Positions 20,778 to 56,058 of a stretch of DNA of 64,000 nucleotides are shown in pieces; position 1 is the stretch's first letter, and every line of letters begins with the position of its first letter. The notes under the pieces are model-generated. The model was not told the origin of the DNA. It searched no databases and saw only the letters and a list, made by a program, of their open reading frames with translations. Source of the stretch: Rhodanobacter thiooxydans (GTDB lineage Bacteria; Pseudomonadota; Gammaproteobacteria; Xanthomonadales; Rhodanobacteraceae); the NCBI RefSeq assembly GCF_021545845.1, contig NZ_CP088923.1, positions 1,240,001 through 1,304,000 on the forward strand. The letters run 5' to 3'. Both the position numbers and the translations under genes were made by a program.

Positions 20778-20890
20778 CCCGCCCGGGTGTGCGCCATGGC
20801 GAACGCTGCATTCGCCATGGCGGCACGCGAGCCGGCGTGGCGACGGTGCTAGACTTCGCCAGCCGGCGATGCCGGCAGACATTACATAGC

Positions 20891-21020
20891 GTCTTCAGGG
20901 CGGGGCGAAATTCCCCACCGGCGGTAGGCCCCGGTTTTTACGGTTTGGGGGCGAGCCCGCGAGCGCTCACGGCAACCGCCGTGAGGTCAGCAGATCCGGT
21001 CGAATGCCGGAGCCGACGGT
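20891..21020 (+). ncRNA. FMN riboswitch (RFN element)
   Basis: The conserved RFN core is visible: TTCAGGGCGGGGCGAAATTC, CCCACCGGCGGTA, then GAGCCCGCGAGCG, and the closing GTCAGCAGATCCGGT...CCGGAGCCGACGGT. It binds FMN and reduces expression of the downstream riboflavin genes. It lies in the 420-base gap before ribE. About 60 bases downstream (21080-21097) a perfect GCACGGC-loop-GCCGTGC stem without a T-run may belong to the expression platform. Confidence 0.95.
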
Positions 21021-21079
21021 TGGAAGCGGGCGATCGCTTCCTCACAGTCCGGATAAAGAGAAGACGGCAGGCGGGCGCT

Positions 21080-42612: not shown

Positions 42613-42628
42613 TGGCACGCGGATTGCA
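42613..42628 (+). promoter_or_regulatory. Consensus sigma-54 (-24/-12) promoter
   Basis: TGGCACG, four bases, TTGCA: an exact match to the sigma-54 consensus (TGGCACG-N4-TTGCW), with correct GG/GC spacing. It lies about 45 bases before the adaptor start codon. Transcription from it would need an AAA+ activator, which the operon itself encodes at 53178. Confidence 0.9.
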
Positions 42629-42673: not shown

Positions 42674-43945
42674 ATGATCCGCGACACTTCCGCACAGGAC
42701 CGACTGGTCGAGGTCAAACCCAACCGCAAGCGCCAGCTGATCCTGCTGGGCGCCGGCGTGCTCGTGCTGGCGCTGCTGGCCTGGCTGGCGCCGGGCGTGG
42801 GCCGGCTGTTCTCGGCGTCCGCATCGGTCAGCAGCTCGCGGCTGGCCTTCGCCACCGTCGAACGCGGCCCGTTCGTGCGCGACATCGCCGCCGAGGGCAA
42901 GGTGGTGGCGGCGGTCAGCCCCACCCTGTACGCCACCTCCGGCGGCGCGGTGGCGCTGAAGGTGCATGCCGGCGACACGGTGAAGGTGGGCCAGGTGCTG
43001 GCCACCATCGTCAGCCCGGAGCTGACCAACAAGCTGGCGCAGGAACAAAGCAACGCCGACGCGATGGAAGTGGGGTACCGGCGCGCGCAGATCGACGCGC
43101 GCAAGCAGCGTTCCGCGCTGCAGGAAACCTACGACAACGCCACCATCGACCAGACCACCGCCGAGCGCAACCTCGATCGCTACCAGAAGGCGTATGCCAA
43201 GGGCGCGGTATCCAACATGGACGTGGACAAGGCCAAGGACGCGCTGGACAAGTCGAAAATCGCCACCACGCATGCCAAGGCCAACCTTGGCCTGGACAAC
43301 GACAGCCTCAACTTCGACATCCAGTCGAAGAAGCTCGCGCACCAGCGCCAGCTGCTGCTGGTCAAGGACCTGCAACGCCAGGTCGACGACCTCGACGTGA
43401 AGTCGCCGGTGGACGGCCAGGTCGGCCAGCTGTTCATCGCCGAGCGCGCCACCGTGGCCAAGGACGCGCAGCTGCTCAGCGTGATCGACCTGTCCGCGCT
43501 GCAGGTGGAGATGCAGGTGCCGGAAAGCTTCGCCCGCGACCTGGGCATCGGCATGGCCGGCGAGATCAGCGGCAACGGCCATACCTGGAAGGGCCTGGTC
43601 AGCGCGATCTCGCCGGAAGTGGTCAACGGCCAGGTCGCCGCGCGGCTGCGCTTCGACGGCGACACGCCGAAGCAGCTGCGGCAGAACCAGCGCCTGTCGG
43701 TGCGCGTGCTGCTGGACAGGCGCGACGACGTGCTGACCGTGCAGCGTGGCTCGTTCGTCGACGAATCCGGCGGCAGCTATGCCTACCTGGTGCGCGACGG
43801 CATCGCCAAGAAAACCCCGATCCGCGTCGGCGCCTCCAGCATCGACAAGGTGGAGATCCTCGACGGCCTGAAGGAAGGCGAGCGCATCGTGATCTCCGGC
43901 ACCGACAGCTTCAAGGGCGCGACCACGGTCGCGATCAGCAACTGA
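42674..43945 (+). CDS. HlyD/RND-type periplasmic adaptor of a MacAB-like exporter
   Basis: A 423-residue membrane-fusion protein. One N-terminal membrane anchor (LILLGAGVLVLALLAWLAPG, about 19-38) precedes split lipoyl domains (VVAAVSPTLYATSGGAVALKVHAGDTVKVGQVLATI and VKSPVDGQVGQLFIAERATVAK). Between them is a long coiled-coil hairpin, residues about 115-240. Beta-barrel and membrane-proximal domains end the protein. It would bridge the inner-membrane ABC complex to an outer-membrane channel (TolC type, not in this window). First gene of the sigma-54 operon. Confidence 0.9.
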   Translation: MIRDTSAQDRLVEVKPNRKRQLILLGAGVLVLALLAWLAPGVGRLFSASASVSSSRLAFATVERGPFVRDIAAEGKVVAAVSPTLYATSGGAVALKVHAGDTVKVGQVLATIVSPELTNKLAQEQSNADAMEVGYRRAQIDARKQRSALQETYDNATIDQTTAERNLDRYQKAYAKGAVSNMDVDKAKDALDKSKIATTHAKANLGLDNDSLNFDIQSKKLAHQRQLLLVKDLQRQVDDLDVKSPVDGQVGQLFIAERATVAKDAQLLSVIDLSALQVEMQVPESFARDLGIGMAGEISGNGHTWKGLVSAISPEVVNGQVAARLRFDGDTPKQLRQNQRLSVRVLLDRRDDVLTVQRGSFVDESGGSYAYLVRDGIAKKTPIRVGASSIDKVEILDGLKEGERIVISGTDSFKGATTVAISN

Positions 43946-43949
43946 CGAT

Positions 43950-44095
43950 TCTCCCTTCTCCCTCCGGGAGAAGGTGCCCGAAGGGCGGATGAGGGTGCGG
44001 GGCTTGCGCGGATTTCCCGCAAGCCCCGCACCCTCTCCCCAACCCCTCTCTCCCACAAGGGGACTTCCTTCGGTCGCCAAAGGGAGAGGGGCTCC
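43950..44095. repeat. REP-like element, family R1 (inverted pair)
   Basis: TTCTCCCTCCGGGAGAAGGTGCCCGAAGGGCGGATGAGGG and its inverted mate CCCTCTCCCCAACCCCTCTCTCCC... lie between the adaptor and ATPase genes. Same family as 15690-15852. Confidence 0.75.
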
Positions 44096-44123
44096 AAGAT
44101 CACCACCACCAAAGGACGCAACC

Positions 44124-44846
44124 ATGCTGAAGATGACCCACCTGTCCAAGGTCTACCGCACCGAAGTGGTGGAGACCTATGCGCTGCGCGATTTCAACAT
44201 CGACGTGAAGGAAGGCGAGTTCGTCGCCGTCACCGGCCCGTCCGGTTCCGGCAAGACCACCTTCCTGACCATCGCCGGTCTGCTGGAAACGTTCTCGGGC
44301 GGCGAGTACCACCTGGACGGCATCGAGGTGAGCAACCTCAACGACAACGCCCGCTCGAAGATCCGCAACGAGAAGATCGGTTTCATCTTCCAGGCGTTCA
44401 ACCTGATCCCCGACCTCAACGTGTTCGACAACATCGAGGTGCCTTTGCGCTACCGCGGCATGAAGGCGGCCGAGCGCAAGCAGCGCATCATGGATTCGCT
44501 TGAGCGCGTCGGCCTGGCCTCGCGCGCCAAGCACTATCCGGCCGAACTCTCCGGCGGCCAGCAGCAGCGCGTGGCGATCGCCCGCGCGCTGGCCGGTTCG
44601 CCGCGCCTGCTGCTGGCGGACGAACCGACCGGCAACCTGGACACCCAGATGGCGCGCGGCGTGCTGGAGCTGCTGGAGGACATCCACCGCGAGGGCGCCA
44701 CCATCGTGATGGTCACGCACGACCCGGAACTGGCTGCACGCGCCCAGCGCAACGTGCACATCATCGACGGCCAGGTGGTGGACCTGTCGGAAGACCCGCG
44801 TTTCCACACTGTGCATGCGGTCGTCGCCGACGAGGCGCACGGCTGA
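44124..44846 (+). CDS. ABC transporter ATP-binding protein (MacB/LolD type)
   Basis: A 240-residue ATPase: Walker [11 protein letters not shown]-loop [26 protein letters not shown], signature [15 protein letters not shown], Walker [13 protein letters not shown], and H-loop MVTHDPELA. It belongs to the group that pairs with FtsX-like permeases and works by mechanotransmission. It is the only ATPase in the operon, so it presumably serves all six permeases. The start is the ATG giving [13 protein letters not shown] after a GGACG ribosome site. Confidence 0.94.
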
Positions 44847-44948: not shown

Positions 44949-46259
44949 ATGTTCGCTTATTACCTCCAACTCGGCCTGCGCAGCCTGCGGCGCAACCCCG
45001 CCCTCACCGCCCTGATGGTGATGGCGATCGGCGTCGGCGTGGCCGCGTCGATGATCACCTGGTCGGTGTTCCGCGCGGTGTCGGGTGATCCGATTCCAGA
45101 CAAGTCCGCGCAGTTGTTCATCTCACAGATCGACGGCTGGGGGCCGCAGCAGAACCTCAAGGGCGAGCCGCCGGATGCATTGAGCTATACCGATGCGATG
45201 GCCTTGATGCGGGCACATGCGGCGAAGCGGCAGACGCTGCTTTACCCGTTGCGGCTGACGGTGCCGCCGGGCGGCGGCCGCAGCCTGCCGGTGGCGGCGG
45301 AGGGCTATGCGGTATATGGCGATTTCTTCCCGATGTTCGAGGTGCCATTCCAGTACGGCAACGGTTGGAGCGCGGCCGACGACGAGAGCCGTGGCGCCGC
45401 GGTGGTGCTCAGCGCGGAATTCAACCAGAAGCTGTTCGGTGGCGCCGACAGCGTGGGGCGCGAGATCACGCTGAATGGGCATGACTACCGCATCGTCGGC
45501 GTGACCAGGCACTGGAACCCCAAGCCGCGCTTCTTCGATTTGTTCAGCAGCAGCGGCTTCGTGGATGCCACGGATTTCTATCTGCCGTTCACCCGCGCGC
45601 TGGATCTGCAGATCAACAGTGCGGGCAGCAACAGCTGCCGCGGAAAATTGAACTTCACCGGCTGGGACGGCTGGCTGCACAGCAATTGCGTGTGGGTCAC
45701 GCCGTGGGTGGAACTGGACAGCGCAGCGGATGTTGCACACTACCGCCAATTCCTCGAGGGCTATGCCGCCGATCAGCAGCGGGCCGGGCGTTTCGCGTGG
45801 ACGCCGAACGTGCGCCTGCGCGACGTGACGCAATGGCTCGCGCACGAGCATGTGGTGCCGCCGGAAAGCCGCATTTCGCTGATCGTCGCGCTGGGCTTCT
45901 TCGCGATCTGCCTGGTCAACACCATTGGCCTGCTGCTGGCCAAGTTCCTGCGTCGTGCCGGCGAGATCGGCGTGCGCCGCGCGCTGGGTGCCTCGCGCCG
46001 GGAAATCTACGCGCAATACCTGCTTGAAGCGGCCACGGTGGGGCTGGCCGGTGGCGTGCTGGGCCTGCTGCTCACTGCGGCAGGGGTTACCGGCGTGGGC
46101 CTGCTGTTTCCCCCGCAGATCGCGCGGCTGGCGCAGCTGGACTTTTCGCTGGTGGCGCTGACCCTGGCGGTCGCGATCTTCGCCACCGTGGCGGCGGCGT
46201 TCTACCCGGCCTGGCGCGCGGCACAGGTGCAGCCGGCCTGGCAATTGAAATCCAACTGA
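44949..46259 (+). CDS. FtsX/MacB-type permease, module A copy 1
   Basis: A 436-residue protein with the MacB topology: membrane helix 1 ([26 protein letters not shown]), a large periplasmic MacB_PCD domain (about 45-310), then three helices in the FtsX domain ([41 protein letters not shown]...). It ends in PAWQLKSN. It pairs with the module B gene ten bases downstream. Probably forms half of a heterodimeric permease driven by the single ATPase. The periplasmic domains of the A copies share motifs such as [12 protein letters not shown] and NQKLFGGA. Confidence 0.9.
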
Positions 46260-46269
46260 GGCGATGGCG

Positions 46270-47502
46270 ATGCAGATCAAACCCATCCTCGCCGCGCTGC
46301 GCCACCACAAGGCCGGCACCGTGCTGCTTGCGCTGCAGATCGCGCTGACCCTGGCGATCGTGTGCAACGCCCTGTTCATCATCCACCAGCGGTTGGCGCA
46401 TCTGTCCCAGCCCAGCGGTGTGGACGAAGCCAACCTGTTCGTGATCTACAGCGAATGGGCGGGGCCGACAACCCCGTCGCAGATCGATGCGCAGGTGCAG
46501 GCCGACCTTTACGCGCTGCGGCAACTTCCCGGCGTGCGCGATGCGGCGCCCGCCAGTTCCTACCCGTTGAGCGGCGGTGGCGACGACATTCCCGCCAGCC
46601 TCACTCCGGATCAGCTCCAATGGACTGCCGACCCGGCGATATACGCAAGCGACGAACACCTGATCGATACGCTGGGGCTGAAGCTGATCGCCGGACGCAA
46701 TTTCCGCGCCGACGAAATCGGCCGGATGGGTTCGCGCGATTTCACCAATCCGCCCGAGGTCATCGTAACCAAGGCGCTGGCCGATCGCATGTTCCCCGAC
46801 GGCACGGCACTGGGCAAGCCGATCTACCTGATGAGCAGCACTCCCAGCACCATCATCGGCATCGTCGATCGCCTGCAACGGCAAAACGTGGGCACCTGGA
46901 CGAGGGCTTACGCCTATCAGGTCGTGCTGTGGCCGAAGCGTCCGAATTTTCCACAAGGGGTGTTCTACCTCGTGCGTGCGAAGCCGGGCCAGCTTGCCGC
47001 CGCGATGCGCCAGGCGCCCAAGGCGCTGTATGCGCAAAGCCGCATGCGCATCATCGATCCCAAGGACGGGTTGCTGAGTTTCGCCGAGGTGCGCCGGCGC
47101 ATCTACGACAGCGACCGTGGCATGGCGATCCTGATGGGCATCATCAGCGTGGTGCTGCTGGCGATCACGGCCGCCGGCATCGTGGGCCTGACCAGCTTCT
47201 GGGTCGGCCAGCGGCGCAAGCAGATCGGCGTGCGTCGCGCGCTGGGCGCCACCCGCGGCGACATCCTCAATTACTTCCTCACCGAGAACCTGCTGATCGG
47301 CCTCGGCGGGGTGCTCGTCGGGGCGGTGCTGGCGATTGGCATCAACCTGTGGATGGTGACCCAGTTCGAGATGGCGCGACTGTCGCTGGCCTATGTGGTG
47401 GCCGGCGTGGTCGCGTTGCTGCTGCTCGGTCAGGGCGCGGTGCTCGCGCCGGCGTTGCGCGCCTCCCGCGTTTCGCCGGTGGAGGCGACGCGCAGCGTGT
47501 GA
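46270..47502 (+). CDS. FtsX/MacB-type permease, module B copy 1
   Basis: A 410-residue permease with the B-type N-terminus QIKPILAALRHHKAGTVLLALQIALTLAIVCN and a smaller periplasmic domain. The C-terminal FtsX domain has [55 protein letters not shown]. It ends in VEATRSV. An ATG two codons upstream exists, but the GAGG ribosome site and the paralogues favour 46270. It differs from A-type genes in its short lead helix and C-terminal signature. Confidence 0.9.
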   Translation: MQIKPILAALRHHKAGTVLLALQIALTLAIVCNALFIIHQRLAHLSQPSGVDEANLFVIYSEWAGPTTPSQIDAQVQADLYALRQLPGVRDAAPASSYPLSGGGDDIPASLTPDQLQWTADPAIYASDEHLIDTLGLKLIAGRNFRADEIGRMGSRDFTNPPEVIVTKALADRMFPDGTALGKPIYLMSSTPSTIIGIVDRLQRQNVGTWTRAYAYQVVLWPKRPNFPQGVFYLVRAKPGQLAAAMRQAPKALYAQSRMRIIDPKDGLLSFAEVRRRIYDSDRGMAILMGIISVVLLAITAAGIVGLTSFWVGQRRKQIGVRRALGATRGDILNYFLTENLLIGLGGVLVGAVLAIGINLWMVTQFEMARLSLAYVVAGVVALLLLGQGAVLAPALRASRVSPVEATRSV

Positions 47503-47508
47503 TTCTGG

Positions 47509-47648
47509 TTTTTCCCCCCTCTCCCTTTGGGAGAGGGGCGGGGGAGAGGGTACGGGCGGAGCGCGGCGCCGCGCGTTGCCGGACCCTCACCCCAACCCAT
47601 CTCACCCGCAAGGGGGCTCCCTCAGGGTCGCCGACGGGAGAGGGGCTC
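47509..47648. repeat. REP-like element, family R1 (inverted pair)
   Basis: CCCTCTCCCTTTGGGAGAGGGG...GAGGGTACGGGCGGAGC and its inverted mate fill the gap between permease modules 1 and 2. Same family as 43950-44095. Confidence 0.75.
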
Positions 47649-47666
47649 AAACGACGGAGAGACGAA

Positions 47667-48980
47667 ATGTTCAGCTACTACCTCGAACTGGCCTTGCGCA
47701 GCCTGAAACGCAGCCCCGGTCTCACCGCCCTGATGGTGCTGGCGATCGGCTTCGGCGTGGCCGCGTCGATGACCAGCTGGTCGGTGTTCCGCGCGGTGTC
47801 GGGCGATCCGATTCCGTGGAAGTCCGCGCAGCTGTTCGTGCCGCAGATCGACAACTGGGGACCGAACGGACGCAGCAGCGACGGCGAGCCGCCGAACGCG
47901 ATGGACTACGCCGACGCGATGGCGCTGATGCGCGGCCATCGCGCCAAGCGGCAGTCGGCGATGTACCAGATCTCGCCGTCGGTGGTGCCGGCCGAGACCG
48001 GCAAGCATCCGCTGAACGTCAGTGGCCATGCCGTCTACGGTGAGTTCTTCCCGATGCTGGACGTACCGTTCAAGTACGGCAGCGGCTGGAGCGCGAGCGA
48101 CGACGAGAGCCGCGCGCCGGTGGCGGTGATCAGCAGCAAGCTCAACCAGAAGCTGTTCGGCGGGGCAGCCAGCGTGGGCCGGTCGGTCGACATCGATGGC
48201 AGGGATTACCGGGTGGTCGGCGTGCTCGACGACTGGAACCCGCAGCCGCGCTTCTACGACGTGGTCAACAGCGGCGGCTTCTCGGTCAACGGCGACGATG
48301 TGTTCCTGCCATTCCTCACTGCGATCCAGACGGGCATGTCGAACGACGGCAACACCAACTGCAACGCGGTGCCCAAGGAGTCGGGCTTCGTCGGCCTGCA
48401 GCGCTCCGAATGCGTGTGGATCGCCTTCATGGCCGAGCTGGACACCGGAGCGGTGGCCGCCTACCGCGACTACCTCGACGGTTACGCACGCGACCAGCAG
48501 CGCGCCGGGCGCTTCGCCTGGGCGCCGAACGGCCGCCTGCGTGACCTGCGTGCGTGGCTGGACAACCAGCACGTGGTGCCCAGCGACACCAAGGTCTCGT
48601 TGCTGGTGGCGCTGGGCCTGCTGCTGGTGTGCCTGGTGAACACGGTGGGCCTGCTGCTGGCGAAGTTCCTGCGCCGCAGCAGCGAGATCGGCGTGCGCCG
48701 CGCGCTGGGTGCGCCGCGTGCGGCGATCTACACGCAGTTCATCACCGAGGCCGGCATCGTCGGCCTTGCCGGCGGCGTGCTGGGCCTGCTGCTCACCGGC
48801 GTGGGCGTGGCCAGCGTGGGCTGGGTGTTGCCGAAGGACATCGCCGCGCTGGCGCGGGTGGACCTGTCGCTGCTGCTGCTCACCCTGCTGGTGGCCGTGA
48901 TCGCCACGGTGCTGGCCGGCCTGTATCCCACCTTCCGCGCCTCGCGCGTGCAGCCTGCCTGGCAGCTGAAGAGCAATTAG
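47667..48980 (+). CDS. FtsX/MacB-type permease, module A copy 2
   Basis: A 437-residue paralogue of the 44949 gene, with FSYYLELALRSLKRSPGLTALMV at the start and the shared [21 protein letters not shown]. Also shared are [48 protein letters not shown] and the ending QPAWQLKSN. The periplasmic domain diverges more than the membrane parts, which suggests selection for different cargo or partner contacts. The start is set by alignment to the other A copies. Confidence 0.9.
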   Translation: MFSYYLELALRSLKRSPGLTALMVLAIGFGVAASMTSWSVFRAVSGDPIPWKSAQLFVPQIDNWGPNGRSSDGEPPNAMDYADAMALMRGHRAKRQSAMYQISPSVVPAETGKHPLNVSGHAVYGEFFPMLDVPFKYGSGWSASDDESRAPVAVISSKLNQKLFGGAASVGRSVDIDGRDYRVVGVLDDWNPQPRFYDVVNSGGFSVNGDDVFLPFLTAIQTGMSNDGNTNCNAVPKESGFVGLQRSECVWIAFMAELDTGAVAAYRDYLDGYARDQQRAGRFAWAPNGRLRDLRAWLDNQHVVPSDTKVSLLVALGLLLVCLVNTVGLLLAKFLRRSSEIGVRRALGAPRAAIYTQFITEAGIVGLAGGVLGLLLTGVGVASVGWVLPKDIAALARVDLSLLLLTLLVAVIATVLAGLYPTFRASRVQPAWQLKSN

Positions 48981-49025
48981 TGCGCTGTCCCTGCGCGTGA
49001 AAGCGGCCATCCGTGGCCGCACTCC
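48981..49025. repeat. R5 repeat after module A copy 2
   Basis: The 45 bases directly after the stop codon (TGCGCTGTCCCTGCGCGTGA..., including GCGGCCATCCGTGGCCGC) are almost identical to the 45 bases after module A copy 3 (51768-51812). The shared spacer shows that modules 2 and 3 arose by duplication of an A-spacer-B block. It can form a short hairpin. Confidence 0.75.
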
Positions 49026-49073
49026 CCAGACAAAGCAGGCTCAATCGTTAGATCTACGCAAGGAACAAGGCTC

Positions 49074-50330
49074 ATGAAACTGCACCCCATCCTCGCCGCG
49101 CTGCGCAAGCACAAGGCCGGCACCGTACTGATCGCGCTGCAGATCGCGCTGACCCTGGCGATCGTGTGCAACGCCGTGTTCATCATCGGCCAGCGGATCG
49201 AGCGGGTGAACCGGCCCACCGGGCTGGACGAGGGCAACCTGTTCCTGGTCAGTCAGCAGTGGGTGGGCGCGCCCAGCGCCGACACGCCAGAGGGCGTGGA
49301 GAAACTGGACGCGATGCAGCGCGAGGACCTCGCCGCGCTGCGCCAGCTGCCGGACGTGGTGTCGGTGGCGCCGATCAACTCGATACCGCTGCTCAACTCT
49401 TCCTGGACCGGTACGGTATCGCTCAAGCCGGACATCAAGCTGGGCGGCCAGGGCAATACCCGCACCGCGTACTACTTCACCGACGATCAGGCGCTCTCCA
49501 CGCTGGGGCTGCGGCTGGTGGCCGGCCGCGCCTTCACCGCCAGCGAGGTGCAGCACCAGGGCTTCCGCGACCAGCGCGAGCGGCCGATCGCCATCATCAC
49601 CCAGCAACTGGCGGACAAGCTGTTCCCGCAGGGCAGTGCGGTCGGCAAGGTAATGTATACCGACGGCGGCAGCGCCCCCACCACCGTGGTCGGCGTGGTG
49701 GAACGCATGCAGATCCCCGCCACCGGCAGCTGGGGCAACGACTTCGCATGGCACTCGACGCTGATCCCGACCCGGCTGGACGCAAACTTCTCGCGCTACG
49801 CGGTGCGCACCAAGCCGGGTCGGCTGGACGCGGCGATGCGCGTGGTCGCGCCGACGCTGTACAAGGTGAACCCGATGCGTGTGCTCGACGACGACAGCGT
49901 GCGCCCGTTCGACGAAATCCGCGCCAAGGCCTACCGGGCCGACCGCGGCATGGCGATCCTGATGGGCGTGGTCGCGCTGATCCTGCTGTGCGTCACCGCC
50001 GCCGGCATCGTCGGCCTCACCAGCTTCTGGGTCGGCCAGCGCCACCGGCAGATCGGCGTGCGGCGCGCGCTGGGCGCGCGCAAGGTGGACATCCTGCGCT
50101 ACTTCCAGATCGAGAACCTGCTGATCGCCGGCGCCGGCGTGGTGATCGGCGTGCTGTTGGCGGTGGGCCTGAACCTGTGGCTGATGAGCCATTACGAGAT
50201 AAGCCGCATCCCCGTGCTGTACGTGCTGACCGGCGTGCTGGCGATGCTGGCGATGGGCCAGGCCGCCGTGTTCGTGCCGGCCCGGCGCGCGTCCAACGTG
50301 CCGCCGGTGGAAGCGACGCGGGCGGCGTGA
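49074..50330 (+). CDS. FtsX/MacB-type permease, module B copy 2
   Basis: A 418-residue paralogue of 46270, starting KLHPILAALRKHKAGTVLIALQIALTLAIVCN. The FtsX domain reads [59 protein letters not shown], ending VEATRAA. Its nearest relative is module B copy 1 (long shared N-terminal helix). Periplasmic text differs, including PINSIPLLNSSWTGTVSLK. Confidence 0.9.
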   Translation: MKLHPILAALRKHKAGTVLIALQIALTLAIVCNAVFIIGQRIERVNRPTGLDEGNLFLVSQQWVGAPSADTPEGVEKLDAMQREDLAALRQLPDVVSVAPINSIPLLNSSWTGTVSLKPDIKLGGQGNTRTAYYFTDDQALSTLGLRLVAGRAFTASEVQHQGFRDQRERPIAIITQQLADKLFPQGSAVGKVMYTDGGSAPTTVVGVVERMQIPATGSWGNDFAWHSTLIPTRLDANFSRYAVRTKPGRLDAAMRVVAPTLYKVNPMRVLDDDSVRPFDEIRAKAYRADRGMAILMGVVALILLCVTAAGIVGLTSFWVGQRHRQIGVRRALGARKVDILRYFQIENLLIAGAGVVIGVLLAVGLNLWLMSHYEISRIPVLYVLTGVLAMLAMGQAAVFVPARRASNVPPVEATRAA

Positions 50331-50337
50331 CGCTTTT

Positions 50338-50442
50338 ACTCCCTCCCCTGCAACGCAGGGGAGGGTTGGGGAGGGGTGCCTTTGATCTTTGAGGCAAGAG
50401 CACCCCTTCCCGACCTCCCCCTGCAAGCAGGGGGAGGAGATG
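50338..50442. repeat. REP-like element, family R2 (inverted pair)
   Basis: CTCCCCTGCAACGCAGGGGAGGG and inverted CTCCCCCTGCAAGCAGGGGGAGG, with GGGGAGGGGTGCC / CACCCCTTCCCGACC tails, lie between modules 2 and 3. Same family as 25505-25612. Confidence 0.75.
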
Positions 50443-50459
50443 CTCCAAGGAGATGTGGA

Positions 50460-51767
50460 ATGTTCGGTTACTACCTCGACCTTGCCCTGCGCAGCCTGAA
50501 GCGCAACAGGGCGCTCACCGCGCTGATGGTGCTGGCGATCGCGCTGGGCATCGGCGCGTCGATGACCACGCTCACCGTGCTGCACGTGCTGTCGGGCGAT
50601 CCGCTGCCAGGGCGCAGCGGCACGCTGTACTACCCGCAGGTCGATCCGCGAGACAACAGCGGCATCATGCCGGGCAAGGAGCCGCCTATGCAGCTCACGG
50701 AGATCGACGGCTTCAACCTGCTGCATGCGAGGCGGGCGGATCGCCAGGCCTTGATGACGGGTGGTGCGGTGCCGATCCAGCCGGATTCCGCCGCGATCGA
50801 TCCGTTCTACGTGGAGGCGCGCTACACCACGACGGATTTCTTCGCGATGTTCGGGGCGCCGTTCCGCTATGGCCGCGGCTGGAGCGCGGCCGACGACGAG
50901 GCCAAGGCGCGCGAGGTGGTGATCAGCAGCGAGTTGAACGAGCGCCTGTTCGGCGGCGCCAACAGTGTGGGCCGCACCTTGCTCGTGGCCGGCAGCCTGT
51001 TGCGCATCGTGGGCGTGCTCGACGACTGGACGCCCAGCCCGCACTTCTACGACCTCAACACCGGCTCCTACGGTTATGCCGAACAGGTGTTCATCCCGCT
51101 GCAGACGATGCTGGACATGCACCTGGATCACAACGGTTCCACCGACTGCTGGGGCAACGGTACCGGCGGCGTGGGGACCATCTATCCCGCGCCGAGCTGC
51201 GTGTGGATGCAGTTCTGGGTACAACTGGACACGCCGGCCAAGGCGGCCGACTACAGGGAGTTCCTGGTCCATTACTCCGGGCAGCAGAAGGCGCTGGGAC
51301 GTTTCATGAAGGCGCCGAACGTGCGCCTGCGCAATCTGATGCAGTGGCTGGCCTACCAACAAGTGGTGCCCGACGACGTACGCCTGCAGGCCGGGATGGC
51401 GTTCGGCTTCCTGCTGGTGTGCCTGGTCAACACGGTGGGCCTGATGCTGGCGAAGTTCCTGCGTCGCGCCAACGAACTCAGCGTGCGGCGCGCGCTGGGC
51501 GCCTCGCGGCGCGCGCTGTTCGCGCAGCTGCTGATCGAGTCGGGCGTGGTGGGGCTGACGGGCGGCATGGGCGGCCTGCTGCTGGCCCTGCTCGGCCTGT
51601 GGGTGGTGCGCCAGCGGCCTTCCGACTATGCCGCGCTGGCGCACCTCGATCCCGCCATGCTGCTGACCACTTTCCTGCTGGCGCTGGGCGCGAGCCTGCT
51701 GGCCGGCCTGCTGCCGGCCTGGCGCGCCTGCCAGGTGGCGCCCGCGCTCCAGTTGAAAAGCAATTAG
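50460..51767 (+). CDS. FtsX/MacB-type permease, module A copy 3
   Basis: A 435-residue paralogue of 44949 and 47667, starting FGYYLDLALRSLKRNRALTALMV. Shared text includes SAADDEAKAREVVISSELNERLFGGANSVGR and [40 protein letters not shown]. It is the most diverged of the three A copies; its end reads APALQLKSN rather than QPAWQLKSN, and the early motif is VLHVLSGDPLPG. The start is set by alignment to the paralogues. Confidence 0.9.
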   Translation: MFGYYLDLALRSLKRNRALTALMVLAIALGIGASMTTLTVLHVLSGDPLPGRSGTLYYPQVDPRDNSGIMPGKEPPMQLTEIDGFNLLHARRADRQALMTGGAVPIQPDSAAIDPFYVEARYTTTDFFAMFGAPFRYGRGWSAADDEAKAREVVISSELNERLFGGANSVGRTLLVAGSLLRIVGVLDDWTPSPHFYDLNTGSYGYAEQVFIPLQTMLDMHLDHNGSTDCWGNGTGGVGTIYPAPSCVWMQFWVQLDTPAKAADYREFLVHYSGQQKALGRFMKAPNVRLRNLMQWLAYQQVVPDDVRLQAGMAFGFLLVCLVNTVGLMLAKFLRRANELSVRRALGASRRALFAQLLIESGVVGLTGGMGGLLLALLGLWVVRQRPSDYAALAHLDPAMLLTTFLLALGASLLAGLLPAWRACQVAPALQLKSN

Positions 51768-51812
51768 TGCGCTTTCCCTGCGCGTGGAAGCGGCCATCCA
51801 TGGCCGCACTGC
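51768..51812. repeat. R5 repeat after module A copy 3
   Basis: Near-identical to 48981-49025 and in the same place relative to the A stop codon. Here the core palindrome GCGGCCATCCATGGCCGC has perfect 8-bp arms. Confidence 0.75.
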
Positions 51813-51853
51813 TCAAGAAAAGCCGCTCCGATCAGGGGCATGGGACAAGACTC

Positions 51854-53089
51854 ATGGAACTGCGACCGATACTTTCCACGCTGCGACGGCACAAGATCAC
51901 CTCGTGGCTGCTGATCCTGGAGATCGCGCTGACCTGCGCGATCGTATGCAACGCGGTGTTCATGATCGGCCACCGGCTGCAACACATGCACATGTCCAGC
52001 GGCATCGACGAGCATGCACTGGTAAAGATCCAGCTGGCCCAGATCGCACCCACGCCCGACATCTTCGTCCGGGCGAGGGAAGACCTTGCCGTGTTGCGGC
52101 AGGTGCCGGGCGTGCAGGCGGCGGCGCTGACCAACCAGTTGCCGATGGAGGGCTCCTCGTCGAACGCCAGCCTCAAGCTGGATCCGGCGCAGCGCGAGCC
52201 CACGCTCAGCGCCGGCACCTACTTCGGCGAGGACCTGCCGCAGACCATGGGCGCGCGGCTGGTGGCCGGGCGCAACCTGCAGCCGGACGAGATCGTCAAT
52301 GCGGATGTGGTGGTCAAGGCGCTGGCCAGCGGCAACACCAAGGGCCTGCCTGCCGCGGTCACGGTGATCACCCAGGCGCTGGCCGACCGCCTTTGGCCGG
52401 GGCAGAGCCCGCTGGGCAAGACGATCTACCTTACCGACCAGGTGGGCGTGCGGGTGGTCGGCGTGCTGGCCGACCTGGCGCGTGCCAACGCCTACAACGA
52501 CGCCACCGCGCATTACTCGGTCGTCCTGCCGCTGTTCATGGGCGTGGGCAGGAACCAGAGCTATGTCGTCCGCACCCGGCCGCAGGATCGCGAAGTCGTT
52601 CTCAAGGCCGCCGTGGCCGCGCTGAAGAAGGCCGATCCGGAACGGGTGGTGACCCAGCAGCGCACCTACGACGAGCTGCGCGGGAAGTTCTTCGCCAACG
52701 ACCGAGCGATGGCCGGCATCCTGGTGGGCGTGATCGTGGCGCTGCTCATCGTCACCGCGCTGGGCATCGCGGGCCTGGCCAGTTTCTGGGTGGCGCAGCG
52801 CCGCCGCACCATCGGCGTGCGCCGCGCGCTGGGCGCCACCCGCGGCGACATCCTGCGCTACTTCCAGACCGAGAACTTCCTGATCGTCACGGGCGGCATC
52901 GTGCTGGGCATGCTGCTGGCCTTCGCACTGAACCTGGTGCTGATGCAGCACTACGAGTTGCCGCGATTGCCGCTGTATTACCTGCCGATCGGTGCGCTGC
53001 TGCTGTGGGGGCTGGGACAGCTGGCGGTGCTCGGCCCGGCAATGCGCGCCGCGGCGGTGCCGCCGGTGGTGGCGACGAGGTCGATATGA
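51854..53089 (+). CDS. FtsX/MacB-type permease, module B copy 3
   Basis: A 411-residue paralogue of the other B genes, starting ELRPILSTLRRHKITSWLLILEIALTCAIVCNAVFMIGHRL. The FtsX domain ([54 protein letters not shown]) is well kept; it ends VVATRSI. It is the last transporter gene; the response regulator begins 88 bases later on the same strand. Confidence 0.9.
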   Translation: MELRPILSTLRRHKITSWLLILEIALTCAIVCNAVFMIGHRLQHMHMSSGIDEHALVKIQLAQIAPTPDIFVRAREDLAVLRQVPGVQAAALTNQLPMEGSSSNASLKLDPAQREPTLSAGTYFGEDLPQTMGARLVAGRNLQPDEIVNADVVVKALASGNTKGLPAAVTVITQALADRLWPGQSPLGKTIYLTDQVGVRVVGVLADLARANAYNDATAHYSVVLPLFMGVGRNQSYVVRTRPQDREVVLKAAVAALKKADPERVVTQQRTYDELRGKFFANDRAMAGILVGVIVALLIVTALGIAGLASFWVAQRRRTIGVRRALGATRGDILRYFQTENFLIVTGGIVLGMLLAFALNLVLMQHYELPRLPLYYLPIGALLLWGLGQLAVLGPAMRAAAVPPVVATRSI

Positions 53090-53177: not shown

Positions 53178-54527
<1,350 letters not shown>

Positions 54528-54678: not shown

Positions 54679-56058
54679 ATGTGGCGTCGCCTGAATTCGC
54701 TGCAGGGGCGCCTGACCCTGCTGCTGGCGGTGGCCGGCCTGGCCGGCGCGCTGGTCTACGCCGGCGTCACCCAGTGGCCGCTGCCGCAATTGTTGGTGTG
54801 GCTGCGCAGGGACCTGGCGCTGTCGATCCGCGCGCCGATGCAGCTGGGCGTCTACGGCGGCCTGCTGGCCAGCGTGGTGGTGCTGCTGCCGCTGGCGTTC
54901 TGGCTGGCCGGCCGGGTGATGGCGCCGGTGAGTCGGCTGCTGCGCGCGCTGGAGGGCGCGGTGGCCAGTTACCGCGACGGCGATTTCAGCTTCTCGATCG
55001 CGATCCACCGGCGCGACGAGCTGGGCGAGCTGATCCGCATGCACAACGCGCTGGGCCAGACCCTGCGCGAGCAGCGCCAGCACCTGGTGCAGCGCGAGCT
55101 GCTGCTCGACACGGTGGTGCAGAACACCCCGGTGGCGCTGGTGCTGACCGATGCGATCGGCAAGGTGGCCTACGCGAACATCGCCTCGCGGCACCTGTTC
55201 AACGAAGGCCGCAGCCTGGTCGGGCTGGATTTCGCCGAGCTGCTGGCCGAAGCGCCCGAGGCGTTGCGCAAAGCGGTGGAAAGCGGCGAGGATGCCCTGC
55301 TCAGCGTGGAGATGGATGGCAGCGAGGAAACCTTCCACCTGTCGCAGCGGGCGTTCCGGCTGCAGGGCCGACCGCACCGGCTGCACCTGTTCCGGCGCAT
55401 GACGCGCGAGCTATCGCGGCAGGAGGTGGCGACCTGGAAGCGGGTGATCCGGGTGATCAGCCACGAGCTCAACAACTCGCTGGCGCCGATCACCTCGTTG
55501 GCGCATTCCGGTGCCGAGCTGGCGCGCCGCGGCCAGCTGGAGCGCTTGCCCGGCGTGTTCGCCACCATCGGCGAGCGCGCGCTGCACCTGCACCGCTTCA
55601 TCGCCGGCTACGCCAGCTTCGCCAAGCTGCCCACGCCGCAGCCGGCGGACGTCGCGTGGAAGCCGTTCCTCGACGGGCTGGCGCTGCATTGCCAGTACTG
55701 CCTGGCGACGCCGGTACCGCTGCGGCCGGGGCATTTCGATGCGGTGCAGATCGAGCAGGTGCTGATCAACCTGATCAAGAACGCGCACGAGTCGGGCGGG
55801 CCGGCCGACGAGGTCACGCTGTCGATCGTGGAGGTCGGCAGCGAGCTGCGCATCGAGGTGGCCGACCGCGGCCCCGGCATGAGCGAGACGGTGCTGGCGC
55901 AGGCGCTGTTGCCGTTCTATTCGACCAAGCGTTCCGGCACCGGCCTGGGCCTGGCGCTGGCGCGCGAGATCACCGAGGCGCACGGCGGCCGCGTACTGCT
56001 GGCCAACCGCGAGGGCGGCGGCCTGCGGGTAAGCCTGCGCCTGCCGCAGCCGCGCTAG
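54679..56058 (+). CDS. Sensor histidine kinase (NtrB/NtrY-like)
   Basis: A 459-residue membrane kinase. Two N-terminal membrane helices (about 10-29 and 57-78) enclose a short periplasmic loop of only about 25-30 residues, so the signal is probably sensed in or near the membrane. HAMP (80-130) and a PAS-like region (about 140-235) follow. The H-box is VISHELNNSLAPI with His262. The ATPase boxes are NLIKNAHESGG, DRGPGMSE and GTGLGLALAREI. It lies downstream of the response regulator and presumably phosphorylates it. Confidence 0.92.
   Translation: MWRRLNSLQGRLTLLLAVAGLAGALVYAGVTQWPLPQLLVWLRRDLALSIRAPMQLGVYGGLLASVVVLLPLAFWLAGRVMAPVSRLLRALEGAVASYRDGDFSFSIAIHRRDELGELIRMHNALGQTLREQRQHLVQRELLLDTVVQNTPVALVLTDAIGKVAYANIASRHLFNEGRSLVGLDFAELLAEAPEALRKAVESGEDALLSVEMDGSEETFHLSQRAFRLQGRPHRLHLFRRMTRELSRQEVATWKRVIRVISHELNNSLAPITSLAHSGAELARRGQLERLPGVFATIGERALHLHRFIAGYASFAKLPTPQPADVAWKPFLDGLALHCQYCLATPVPLRPGHFDAVQIEQVLINLIKNAHESGGPADEVTLSIVEVGSELRIEVADRGPGMSETVLAQALLPFYSTKRSGTGLGLALAREITEAHGGRVLLANREGGGLRVSLRLPQPR

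What the first reader, a model, noticed from the sequence alone, without database searches (positions are those of the whole stretch)
44949..53089. Six permeases as three tandem copies of a two-gene A/B module, served by one ATPase and one adaptor
Genes at 44949, 47667 and 50460 share one N-terminal signature (xYYLxLxLRSL) and end in LKSN. Genes at 46270, 49074 and 51854 share another (PILxxLRxHK) and end in xATRxx. They strictly alternate A-B-A-B-A-B. Only one HlyD-type adaptor and one MacB-type ATPase precede them. MacB systems normally have one permease; here the periplasmic domains differ most between copies. Either several A/B heterodimers share one ATPase with different cargoes, or a larger mixed complex forms. 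I know of no characterised function for this layout.
Basis: partly seen in the sequence, partly recalled or inferred. Interest (0 to 1): 0.75.

Follow-up and report, generated by a model that had tools for sequence, protein, structure and literature searches.

The report
One ATPase serving many paired permeases
This bacterium carries a pump operon with one motor and one connector but three different two-part membrane pumps, and relatives carry up to eleven, which suggests a plug-in exporter whose interchangeable parts handle different molecules.

Summary
Six intact permease genes alternate A-B-A-B-A-B behind one adaptor and one ATPase. A and B are the split N- and C-terminal halves of an ADOP-type (TIGR03434) duplicated MacB-fold permease: A groups with N-halves and B with C-halves of fused ADOPs at 99% support. 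The minimal operon adaptor-ATPase-A-B, once each, is found in 14 of 16 regions from other families of the order and in 3 of 3 from outside it. In Rhodanobacteraceae only A-B is multiplied: 37 complete operons hold 2 to 11 modules and one ATPase each. A and B of a module evolve together (r 0.88; 0.04 when shuffled within loci). The ATPase-facing segment is the most conserved between modules, the periplasmic domain the least. A sigma-54 site precedes the adaptor in 63 of 66 loci.

Best reading: an inducible tripartite type VII ABC exporter in which one ATPase and one adaptor serve several alternative A/B heterodimers with different periplasmic (cargo) domains. Sharing and cargo are inferred, not shown; comparable arrays of fused permeases often have a second ATPase (8 of 18). 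A new variant of a known kind.

The parts
42613..42628 (+). sigma-54 -24/-12 promoter-like site TGGCACGCGGATTGCA, 62 nt before the adaptor match
   Evidence: only match to the strict pattern in the 64-kb window, both strands; a TGGCA-N6-TTGC site is present in 63 of 66 loci with a full adaptor
42674..43945 (+). periplasmic adaptor (HlyD/MacA/DarC type)
   Evidence: Pfam HlyD_D23 and HlyD_3, NCBIfam RND_mfp over cut-off
44124..44846 (+). ABC ATPase (DarD/LolD/MacB-NBD type); Walker A, LSGGQ, Walker B and H-loop readable in the sequence
   Evidence: Pfam ABC_tran; best NCBIfam match DarD, 258 bits, below its 375-bit cut-off
44949..46259 (+). permease A1 (class a), N-half type
   Evidence: MacB_PCD + FtsX; ADOP profile positions 5-401; AlphaFold model nearest MacB 5gko
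46270..47502 (+). permease B1 (class a), C-half type
   Evidence: MacB_PCD + FtsX; ADOP profile positions 411-801; AlphaFold model nearest MacB 5gko
47667..48980 (+). permease A2 (class c), N-half type
49074..50330 (+). permease B2 (class c), C-half type
50460..51767 (+). permease A3 (class b), N-half type; groups in the tree with single-module operons L163 and L165 of a sister family
51854..53089 (+). permease B3 (class b), C-half type; same grouping as A3
53181..54527 (+). sigma-54-dependent response regulator
   Evidence: Response_reg + Sigma54_activat + HTH_8; a relative closes each of the 37 operons counted as complete (by definition)
54679..56058 (+). sensor histidine kinase (HAMP, HATPase_c)

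Best explanation
The operon encodes a modular tripartite ABC exporter of the MacB (type VII) kind. Each A/B gene pair makes one 4+4-helix permease heterodimer, the split form of an ADOP duplicated permease. The dimer binds two copies of the single ATPase through the conserved cytoplasmic coupling helices. It docks to a hexamer of the single adaptor, which leads to a TolC-type channel (encoded in the operon in some relatives, elsewhere in the genome here). ATP-driven closing of the two periplasmic domains pushes periplasmic molecules outward, as in MacB mechanotransmission. The three A/B pairs are alternative permeases with different periplasmic domains and so probably different cargoes, most likely toxic peptides or antibiotics. 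The downstream kinase and sigma-54 regulator switch on the whole set from the sigma-54 promoter in front of the adaptor. Shown here: gene layout, homology, split-half identity, one-module minimal operon, one ATPase and adaptor per complete array, co-inheritance of A and B by module, and region-wise conservation. Inferred: heterodimer formation, stoichiometry, sharing of the ATPase and adaptor, cargo, and induction.
For: A hits the first half and B the second half of ADOP; A joins fused N-halves and B joins fused C-halves at 99% support, so one A plus one B corresponds to one fused permease. One-module operons: 14 of 16 regions from other families of the order (L166 has four modules, L177 two) and 3 of 3 regions from outside the order. 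In 37 complete arrays the number of modules is 2-11 while the ATPase stays at one; the other 31 adaptor-bearing loci show one ATPase as far as the sequence held goes. A/B mirror-tree r 0.884 against 0.044 +/- 0.021 for 200 within-locus shuffles over 270 modules; within classes a-c partial r 0.95, 0.87 and 0.86 after removing adaptor+ATPase distance. Median identity between modules of a locus: coupling segment 0.76 (A) and 0.74 (B), periplasmic domain 0.42 and 0.30. A-B pairs seen without an adaptor keep the coupling segment (A 21-24 of 26 residues, B 20-23 of 24, six pairs), and 9 of 9 genomes searched have a single close adaptor. A TolC-type gene lies inside the operon in 8 of 20 extended arrays (family checked for one). 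Both models are nearest MacB. Sigma-54 site in 63 of 66 loci.
Against: No interaction, transport or expression was measured. Co-inheritance of A and B could follow from physical linkage alone, and it is weaker in class d (r 0.61, n 32) and class e (r 0.34, n 16). The excess periplasmic divergence at matched membrane identity is modest (A 0.47-0.48 against 0.52-0.54; B 0.32-0.37 against 0.41-0.46), and the classes were defined on whole sequences. Eight of 18 arrays of fused permeases elsewhere in the order hold a second ATPase, near the array's end, a place not seen in the 31 loci that were not followed to the regulator. The own genome has other ATPases of this type at 46% and 43% identity that could help. 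L026 carries an array of at least 10 modules without adaptor or ATPase in the 10 kb upstream. No biosynthetic gene points to a cargo.
Confidence: 0.62

Rival explanations
1. A larger mixed complex: several different A and B subunits assemble together around one adaptor ring and ATPase set, with obligatory cooperation between modules.
For: All modules of an array lie in one operon-like run with one adaptor and one ATPase.
Against: One A and one B stand alone with adaptor and ATPase in relatives; fused ADOPs join one N- and one C-half; module number varies from 2 to 11 among complete arrays; A and B pair by module, not across modules.
Confidence: 0.08
2. Dosage or drift: the modules are redundant copies kept for amount of pump, or are decaying duplicates.
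For: Copy number differs among close relatives; a few copies are broken (L012) or a B lacks its A (L013, L017, L019).
Against: Window copies are only 42-60% identical and all open; module classes recur as groups across genera in a similar order, not homogenised as dosage copies would be.
Confidence: 0.15
3. Not an exporter: a mechanotransmission or sensing system (as in FtsEX or BceAB), in which modules act on envelope enzymes or signal to the kinase next door.
For: The two-component system closes the operon; the type VII family includes members that do not transport across the membrane in which they sit or that work with a two-component system (PMC5985334, passages); a DUF885 gene with an apparent signal peptide is found at 23 of 78 loci.
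Against: A HlyD/MacA-type adaptor comes before the ATPase, and a TolC-type channel gene is in the operon in 8 of 20 extended arrays, which points to export across the outer membrane.
Confidence: 0.13

Closest known systems
ADOP family duplicated permease (NCBIfam TIGR03434)
   Same: Two MacB/FtsX-type units in the order A then B; same half-by-half homology; tandem arrays of the fused form in other families of the order
   Different: Here the halves are separate genes and none reaches the ADOP cut-off. The arrays are headed by an adaptor and an ATPase; as I recall, the family was called orphan because its members were not found beside ATPases, but 18 of the 19 fused-ADOP regions that I fetched also have them
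MacAB-TolC
   Same: Permease fold (nearest PDB match 5gko for both models), adaptor, TolC-type exit, probable mechanotransmission
   Different: ATPase is a separate gene, permease is probably an A/B heterodimer, and there are several permeases per ATPase
DarBCD (darobactin exporter)
   Same: Adaptor, separate ATPase and a 777-aa permease model; DarD is the best NCBIfam match of the ATPase
   Different: All matches are far below the equivalog cut-offs; the permease here is split and multiplied; darobactin biosynthesis genes were not searched for
LolCDE
   Same: Heterodimer of two 4-helix permeases on two copies of one separate ATPase (PMC8277102, passages)
   Different: Lol profiles match weakly; Lol has, as I recall, no HlyD-type adaptor or TolC exit and no set of alternative permease pairs
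Multitask ATPases of importers (MsmK, MsmX) and shared ECF modules
   Same: One energising ATPase shared by several membrane partners
   Different: Those are importers (PMC7658222, PMC4519317, PMC5730181: starts of abstracts in the listing; ECF recalled); here an exporter is proposed

Membership tests
Type VII (MacB/FtsX) ABC superfamily | 4-helix FtsX-type permease with extracytoplasmic domain between helices 1 and 2 | tested here: met
   FtsX and MacB_PCD over cut-off in all six; models of A1 and B1 with long helix 1, periplasmic domain and further long helices, nearest MacB
ADOP TIGR03434 | single polypeptide with two permease units over the 622.3-bit cut-off | tested here: not met
   each protein matches one half at 169-190 bits; separate genes
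ADOP TIGR03434 | half-by-half homology, first unit then second unit | tested here: met
MacB (NF007826) | ATPase domain fused to the permease, 966-bit cut-off | tested here: not met
   separate ATPase gene; best 212 bits (ATPase) and 63 bits (permease B2)
MacB (NF007826) | homodimeric permease working with MacA and TolC | not testable with these tools
   no complex prediction on hand; comparative evidence favours A/B heterodimers
DarBCD | equivalog scores of DarB, DarC, DarD | tested here: not met
   DarD 258 of 375 bits, DarC 82 of 450, DarB 19 and 22 of 700 in B1 and B3 only
DarBCD | neighbouring darobactin biosynthesis genes | not tested
   not searched for
LolCDE | LolC/LolE model scores over cut-off | tested here: not met
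   TIGR02212 24-30 of 362 bits in four of six permeases, not listed for A3 and B3; other Lol permease models at most 32 bits

The most novel reading that the evidence does not exclude
A plug-in exporter: one energising core (ATPase plus adaptor) serves in cis and in trans a genome-wide repertoire of up to a dozen or so interchangeable A/B permease heterodimers, including pairs elsewhere in the genome, each with its own cargo. It would be the export counterpart of shared-ATPase importers, with the repertoire expanded and trimmed species by species.
Probability: 0.42. Interest if true: 0.8.

Novelty: new variant of a known kind. Interest (0 to 1): 0.62.

Why it matters
Exporters of this class are described as having one permease, homo- or heterodimeric or fused, per ATPase (PMC5985334, passages). 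Operons with up to 22 permease genes for one ATPase and one adaptor would show how efflux specificity can be multiplied by swapping only the membrane and periplasmic part. They would also suggest a function for a large family (ADOP) for which I found no characterised member. The one-module relatives and the 2- to 11-module arrays make the question directly testable.

Tried and rejected
Literature: ten searches listed no paper that, by title and start of abstract, describes this arrangement; TIGR03434 gave none, and 'adop' matched ordinary words such as 'adopt'. Only passages of PMC5985334, PMC8277102 and PMC9723581 were seen. The library lacks most subscription papers, so absence is weak evidence.

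Cargo from neighbours: upstream is a TonB-dependent receptor and downstream a Band 7 protein; neither points to a cargo. A search with the strict sigma-54 motif gave 6 sites in the own genome against 1 for the reversed-pattern control; looking by eye at ORFs around five of them showed no common theme. A loose sigma-54 pattern found no site in the 1.2 kb before the own separate A-B pair.

Fast-evolving periplasmic domains alone would not show specialisation, so paralogues were compared with same-class pairs at matched membrane identity; the excess is there but modest, and partly circular.

Considered and dropped: the A/B split as a sequencing error (270 complete modules show it); a second ATPase in the window's operon (none).

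Not done: complexes could not be predicted.
Full report
CHECK OF THE OBSERVATION. A-A identity is 47-60%, B-B 42-52%, A-B 20-26%. All six carry MacB_PCD and FtsX domains over Pfam's cut-offs. One adaptor and one ATPase precede them; a sigma-54 response regulator and a histidine kinase follow.

WHAT A AND B ARE. NCBIfam's ADOP model (TIGR03434, a duplicated permease of 803 positions) matches A proteins over positions 5-401 and B proteins over 410-802, at 169-190 bits against a whole-protein cut-off of 622.3. In a tree of 60 rows, 16 A and 14 N-halves of fused ADOPs form one side and 16 B and 14 C-halves the other; each of the four groups is one side of a branch with 99-100% SH-aLRT support (quick method, no bootstrap; 14 of 72 fused ORFs drawn at random by the script; one N-half has a long branch and one an odd letter make-up). 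A module is thus the split form of one fused permease, and the A/B duplication is older than the split or fusion. AlphaFold models of A1 (mean pLDDT 82.3) and B1 (92.5) are nearest MacB 5gko in the PDB.

DISTRIBUTION. A genome-contig scan with the A alignment confirmed 329 stretches and kept 80, in 76 loci; the named isolates are mainly Rhodanobacter, Dyella, Luteibacter, Frateuria and Fulvimonas. Adjacent permease hits over these loci and the window: AB 275, BA 221, BB 3, AA 2. Nineteen of the 76 loci were extended and one further array added. Of these 78 (76, the window, L149), 68 have the adaptor in the sequence held; 37 of the 68 reach the response regulator. The 37 have one ATPase each, and the other 31 show one as far as they go. 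L022's adaptor is in two pieces. The 37 hold 2 (8 loci), 3 (4), 4 (7), 5 (6), 6 (3), 7 (5), 8 (2) or 11 (2) B genes, with equal A and B in 35 (L012 has broken A pieces, L013 a B without an A; L046 is undercounted by one because a stretch was not fetched). The two 11-module operons are in Rhodanobacter glycinis MO64 and Fulvimonas sp. R45. L026 has an array of at least 10 modules without adaptor or ATPase in 10 kb upstream; that genome's adaptor, ATPase and TolC-type gene sit on another contig with one module near the contig end.

ANCESTRAL STATE. In the order-wide search 121 of 121 genomes match ADOP at E <= 0.001, but so do 13 of 14 control genomes; the useful figure is 38 of 121 with a match over the cut-off, against 0 of 14 controls (in nearly all genomes only seven candidates were scored). 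Nineteen regions rich in fused ADOPs were chosen and fetched; 18 hold an adaptor-ATPase pair (L112 continues L097), in L106 with one permease before it and in L109 with regulator and kinase on the other side. Eight of the 18 hold a second ATPase near the end. With the A alignment, 17 of 20 genomes of other families chosen by me match at 1e-20. Of the 20 regions fetched next, 16 come from other families of the order: 14 have one module, L166 four and L177 two; L170 and L181 show no regulator. In a draw of 229 genomes of the class, 6 match at 1e-60, own genome included, 3 of them outside the order. All 3 show adaptor-ATPase-A-B once, one with regulator and kinase.

A AND B AS PARTNERS. Over 270 complete modules the A and B distance matrices correlate at 0.884; shuffling B among modules of the same locus gives 0.044 +/- 0.021, maximum 0.107 in 200 shuffles. 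The nearest module in another locus is the same for A and B in 165 of 270. Mapping modules between loci agrees in 16573 of 18410 cases (90%; about 29% by chance). Within classes a-e, r is 0.95, 0.92, 0.89, 0.61 and 0.34; given adaptor+ATPase distance, 0.95, 0.87, 0.86, 0.56 and 0.31. Linkage could explain this without contact, but the fused homologues make contact the natural reading.

MODULE CLASSES AND REGIONS. Clustering at a cut-off chosen by me gives recurring classes (a 105, b 63, c 42, d 33, e 18 of 270); by hand count the first complete module seen is class a in 71 of 78 listed rows; the window is a-c-b. Between classes within a locus (344 pairs; region limits set by me) median identity in A is 0.76 in the coupling segment, 0.61 at the N-terminus and helix 1, 0.56 in helix 2, 0.47 in helices 3-4 and 0.42 in the periplasmic domain; in B 0.74, 0.59, 0.61, 0.54 and 0.30. 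At matched membrane identity, paralogues have lower periplasmic identity than same-class pairs (A 0.47-0.48 against 0.52-0.54; B 0.32-0.37 against 0.41-0.46; bins of 15 to 1198 pairs).

SHARING IN TRANS. The own genome has one further A-B pair at C1:1168144-1170698 with no adaptor or ATPase found in the 20 kb fetched. Its coupling segments match the consensus at 21 of 26 (A) and 23 of 24 (B); five other pairs seen without an adaptor have 21-24 and 20-22 (L072 is cut 0.7 kb upstream, so its state is not known). Nine of nine genomes searched have a single adaptor match at 1e-30, and the 28 genomes searched hold 3-14 A matches at 1e-40. This fits, but does not show, service in trans.

REGULATION AND EXIT CHANNEL. 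TGGCA-N6-TTGC stands 49-65 nt before the adaptor match in 63 of 66 loci with a full adaptor, window included; L030, L034 and L041 lack it. By my estimate fewer than one such site is expected in that much sequence. The strict form occurs 6 times in the own genome. Twelve loci have a gap of about 1.4-1.6 kb between ATPase and A1. The four translated give alike proteins, and the one tested is an outer membrane efflux protein (PF02321). A search with it finds the gene in 8 of 20 extended arrays and in L173; unextended loci were not scanned for it. The window has none there, but the genome has 33 OEP domain matches elsewhere.

MECHANISM. MacB-type permeases bring their periplasmic domains together on ATP binding and drive periplasmic substrates through MacA and TolC; LolCE is a heterodimer on one ATPase pair, and YbbP and BceB are fused forms (PMC5985334, passages; PMC8277102, passages). 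The operon supplies these parts except the channel. That the cargo is toxic peptide or antibiotic is a guess from the family. Weak hints: a DUF885 gene is found at 23 of 78 loci (15 in the first set, 8 in the extended set; not at the window's operon), a subclass B3 metallo-beta-lactamase gene sits inside one array (L023), and MacB-type pumps adjoin biosynthetic clusters in an Acidobacteria genus (PMC9723581, passages).

NOVELTY. No description of the arrangement was found in the ten searches named in Tried and rejected. It is a new variant of the MacB/ADOP kind. The boldest reading, a shared-core exporter with exchangeable permease pairs, remains open.

Noticed in passing
window 43946-44123, 47503-47666, 50331-50459; 48981-49073 and 51768-51853: Intergenic spaces of the operon hold palindromic repeat elements; a 22-nt hairpin shared by the A2-B2 and A3-B3 spaces occurs 6 times in the genome, so it is a dispersed repeat and not only a trace of module duplication.
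   Followed up: partly
window 20887-21069 (+): FMN riboswitch over the Rfam gathering score.
   Followed up: no
L023, between B1 and A2: A subclass B3 metallo-beta-lactamase gene (NF033105, over its cut-off) sits inside the permease array.
   Followed up: partly
L042, L035, L034, L075 and others, between last B and the response regulator: A DUF885 gene with an apparent signal peptide (by eye) is found at 23 of 78 loci; in the window's genome the best relative lies elsewhere (C1:44850-46388).
   Followed up: partly
L096, L098, L099, L100, L108, L111, L113, L114: Arrays of fused ADOPs hold a second ATPase gene near their end, scoring lower with the window's ATPase profile than the first; whether it pairs with the first is unknown.
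   Followed up: no
L115 (own genome C1:1160000-1179900): The separate A-B pair has a sigma-54-type response regulator gene on the opposite strand just downstream; the ORF upstream looks like a response regulator by eye, not tested.
   Followed up: partly
G000 contig C2 80137-88330 and C1 2429466-2437659: Identical OEP match scores on C1 and C2 suggest a stretch duplicated between the two contigs.
   Followed up: no
L033: A contig titled Candidatus Eremiobacteraeota carries a Rhodanobacteraceae-like array (74% identity to A1); it may be a misbinned contig.
   Followed up: no
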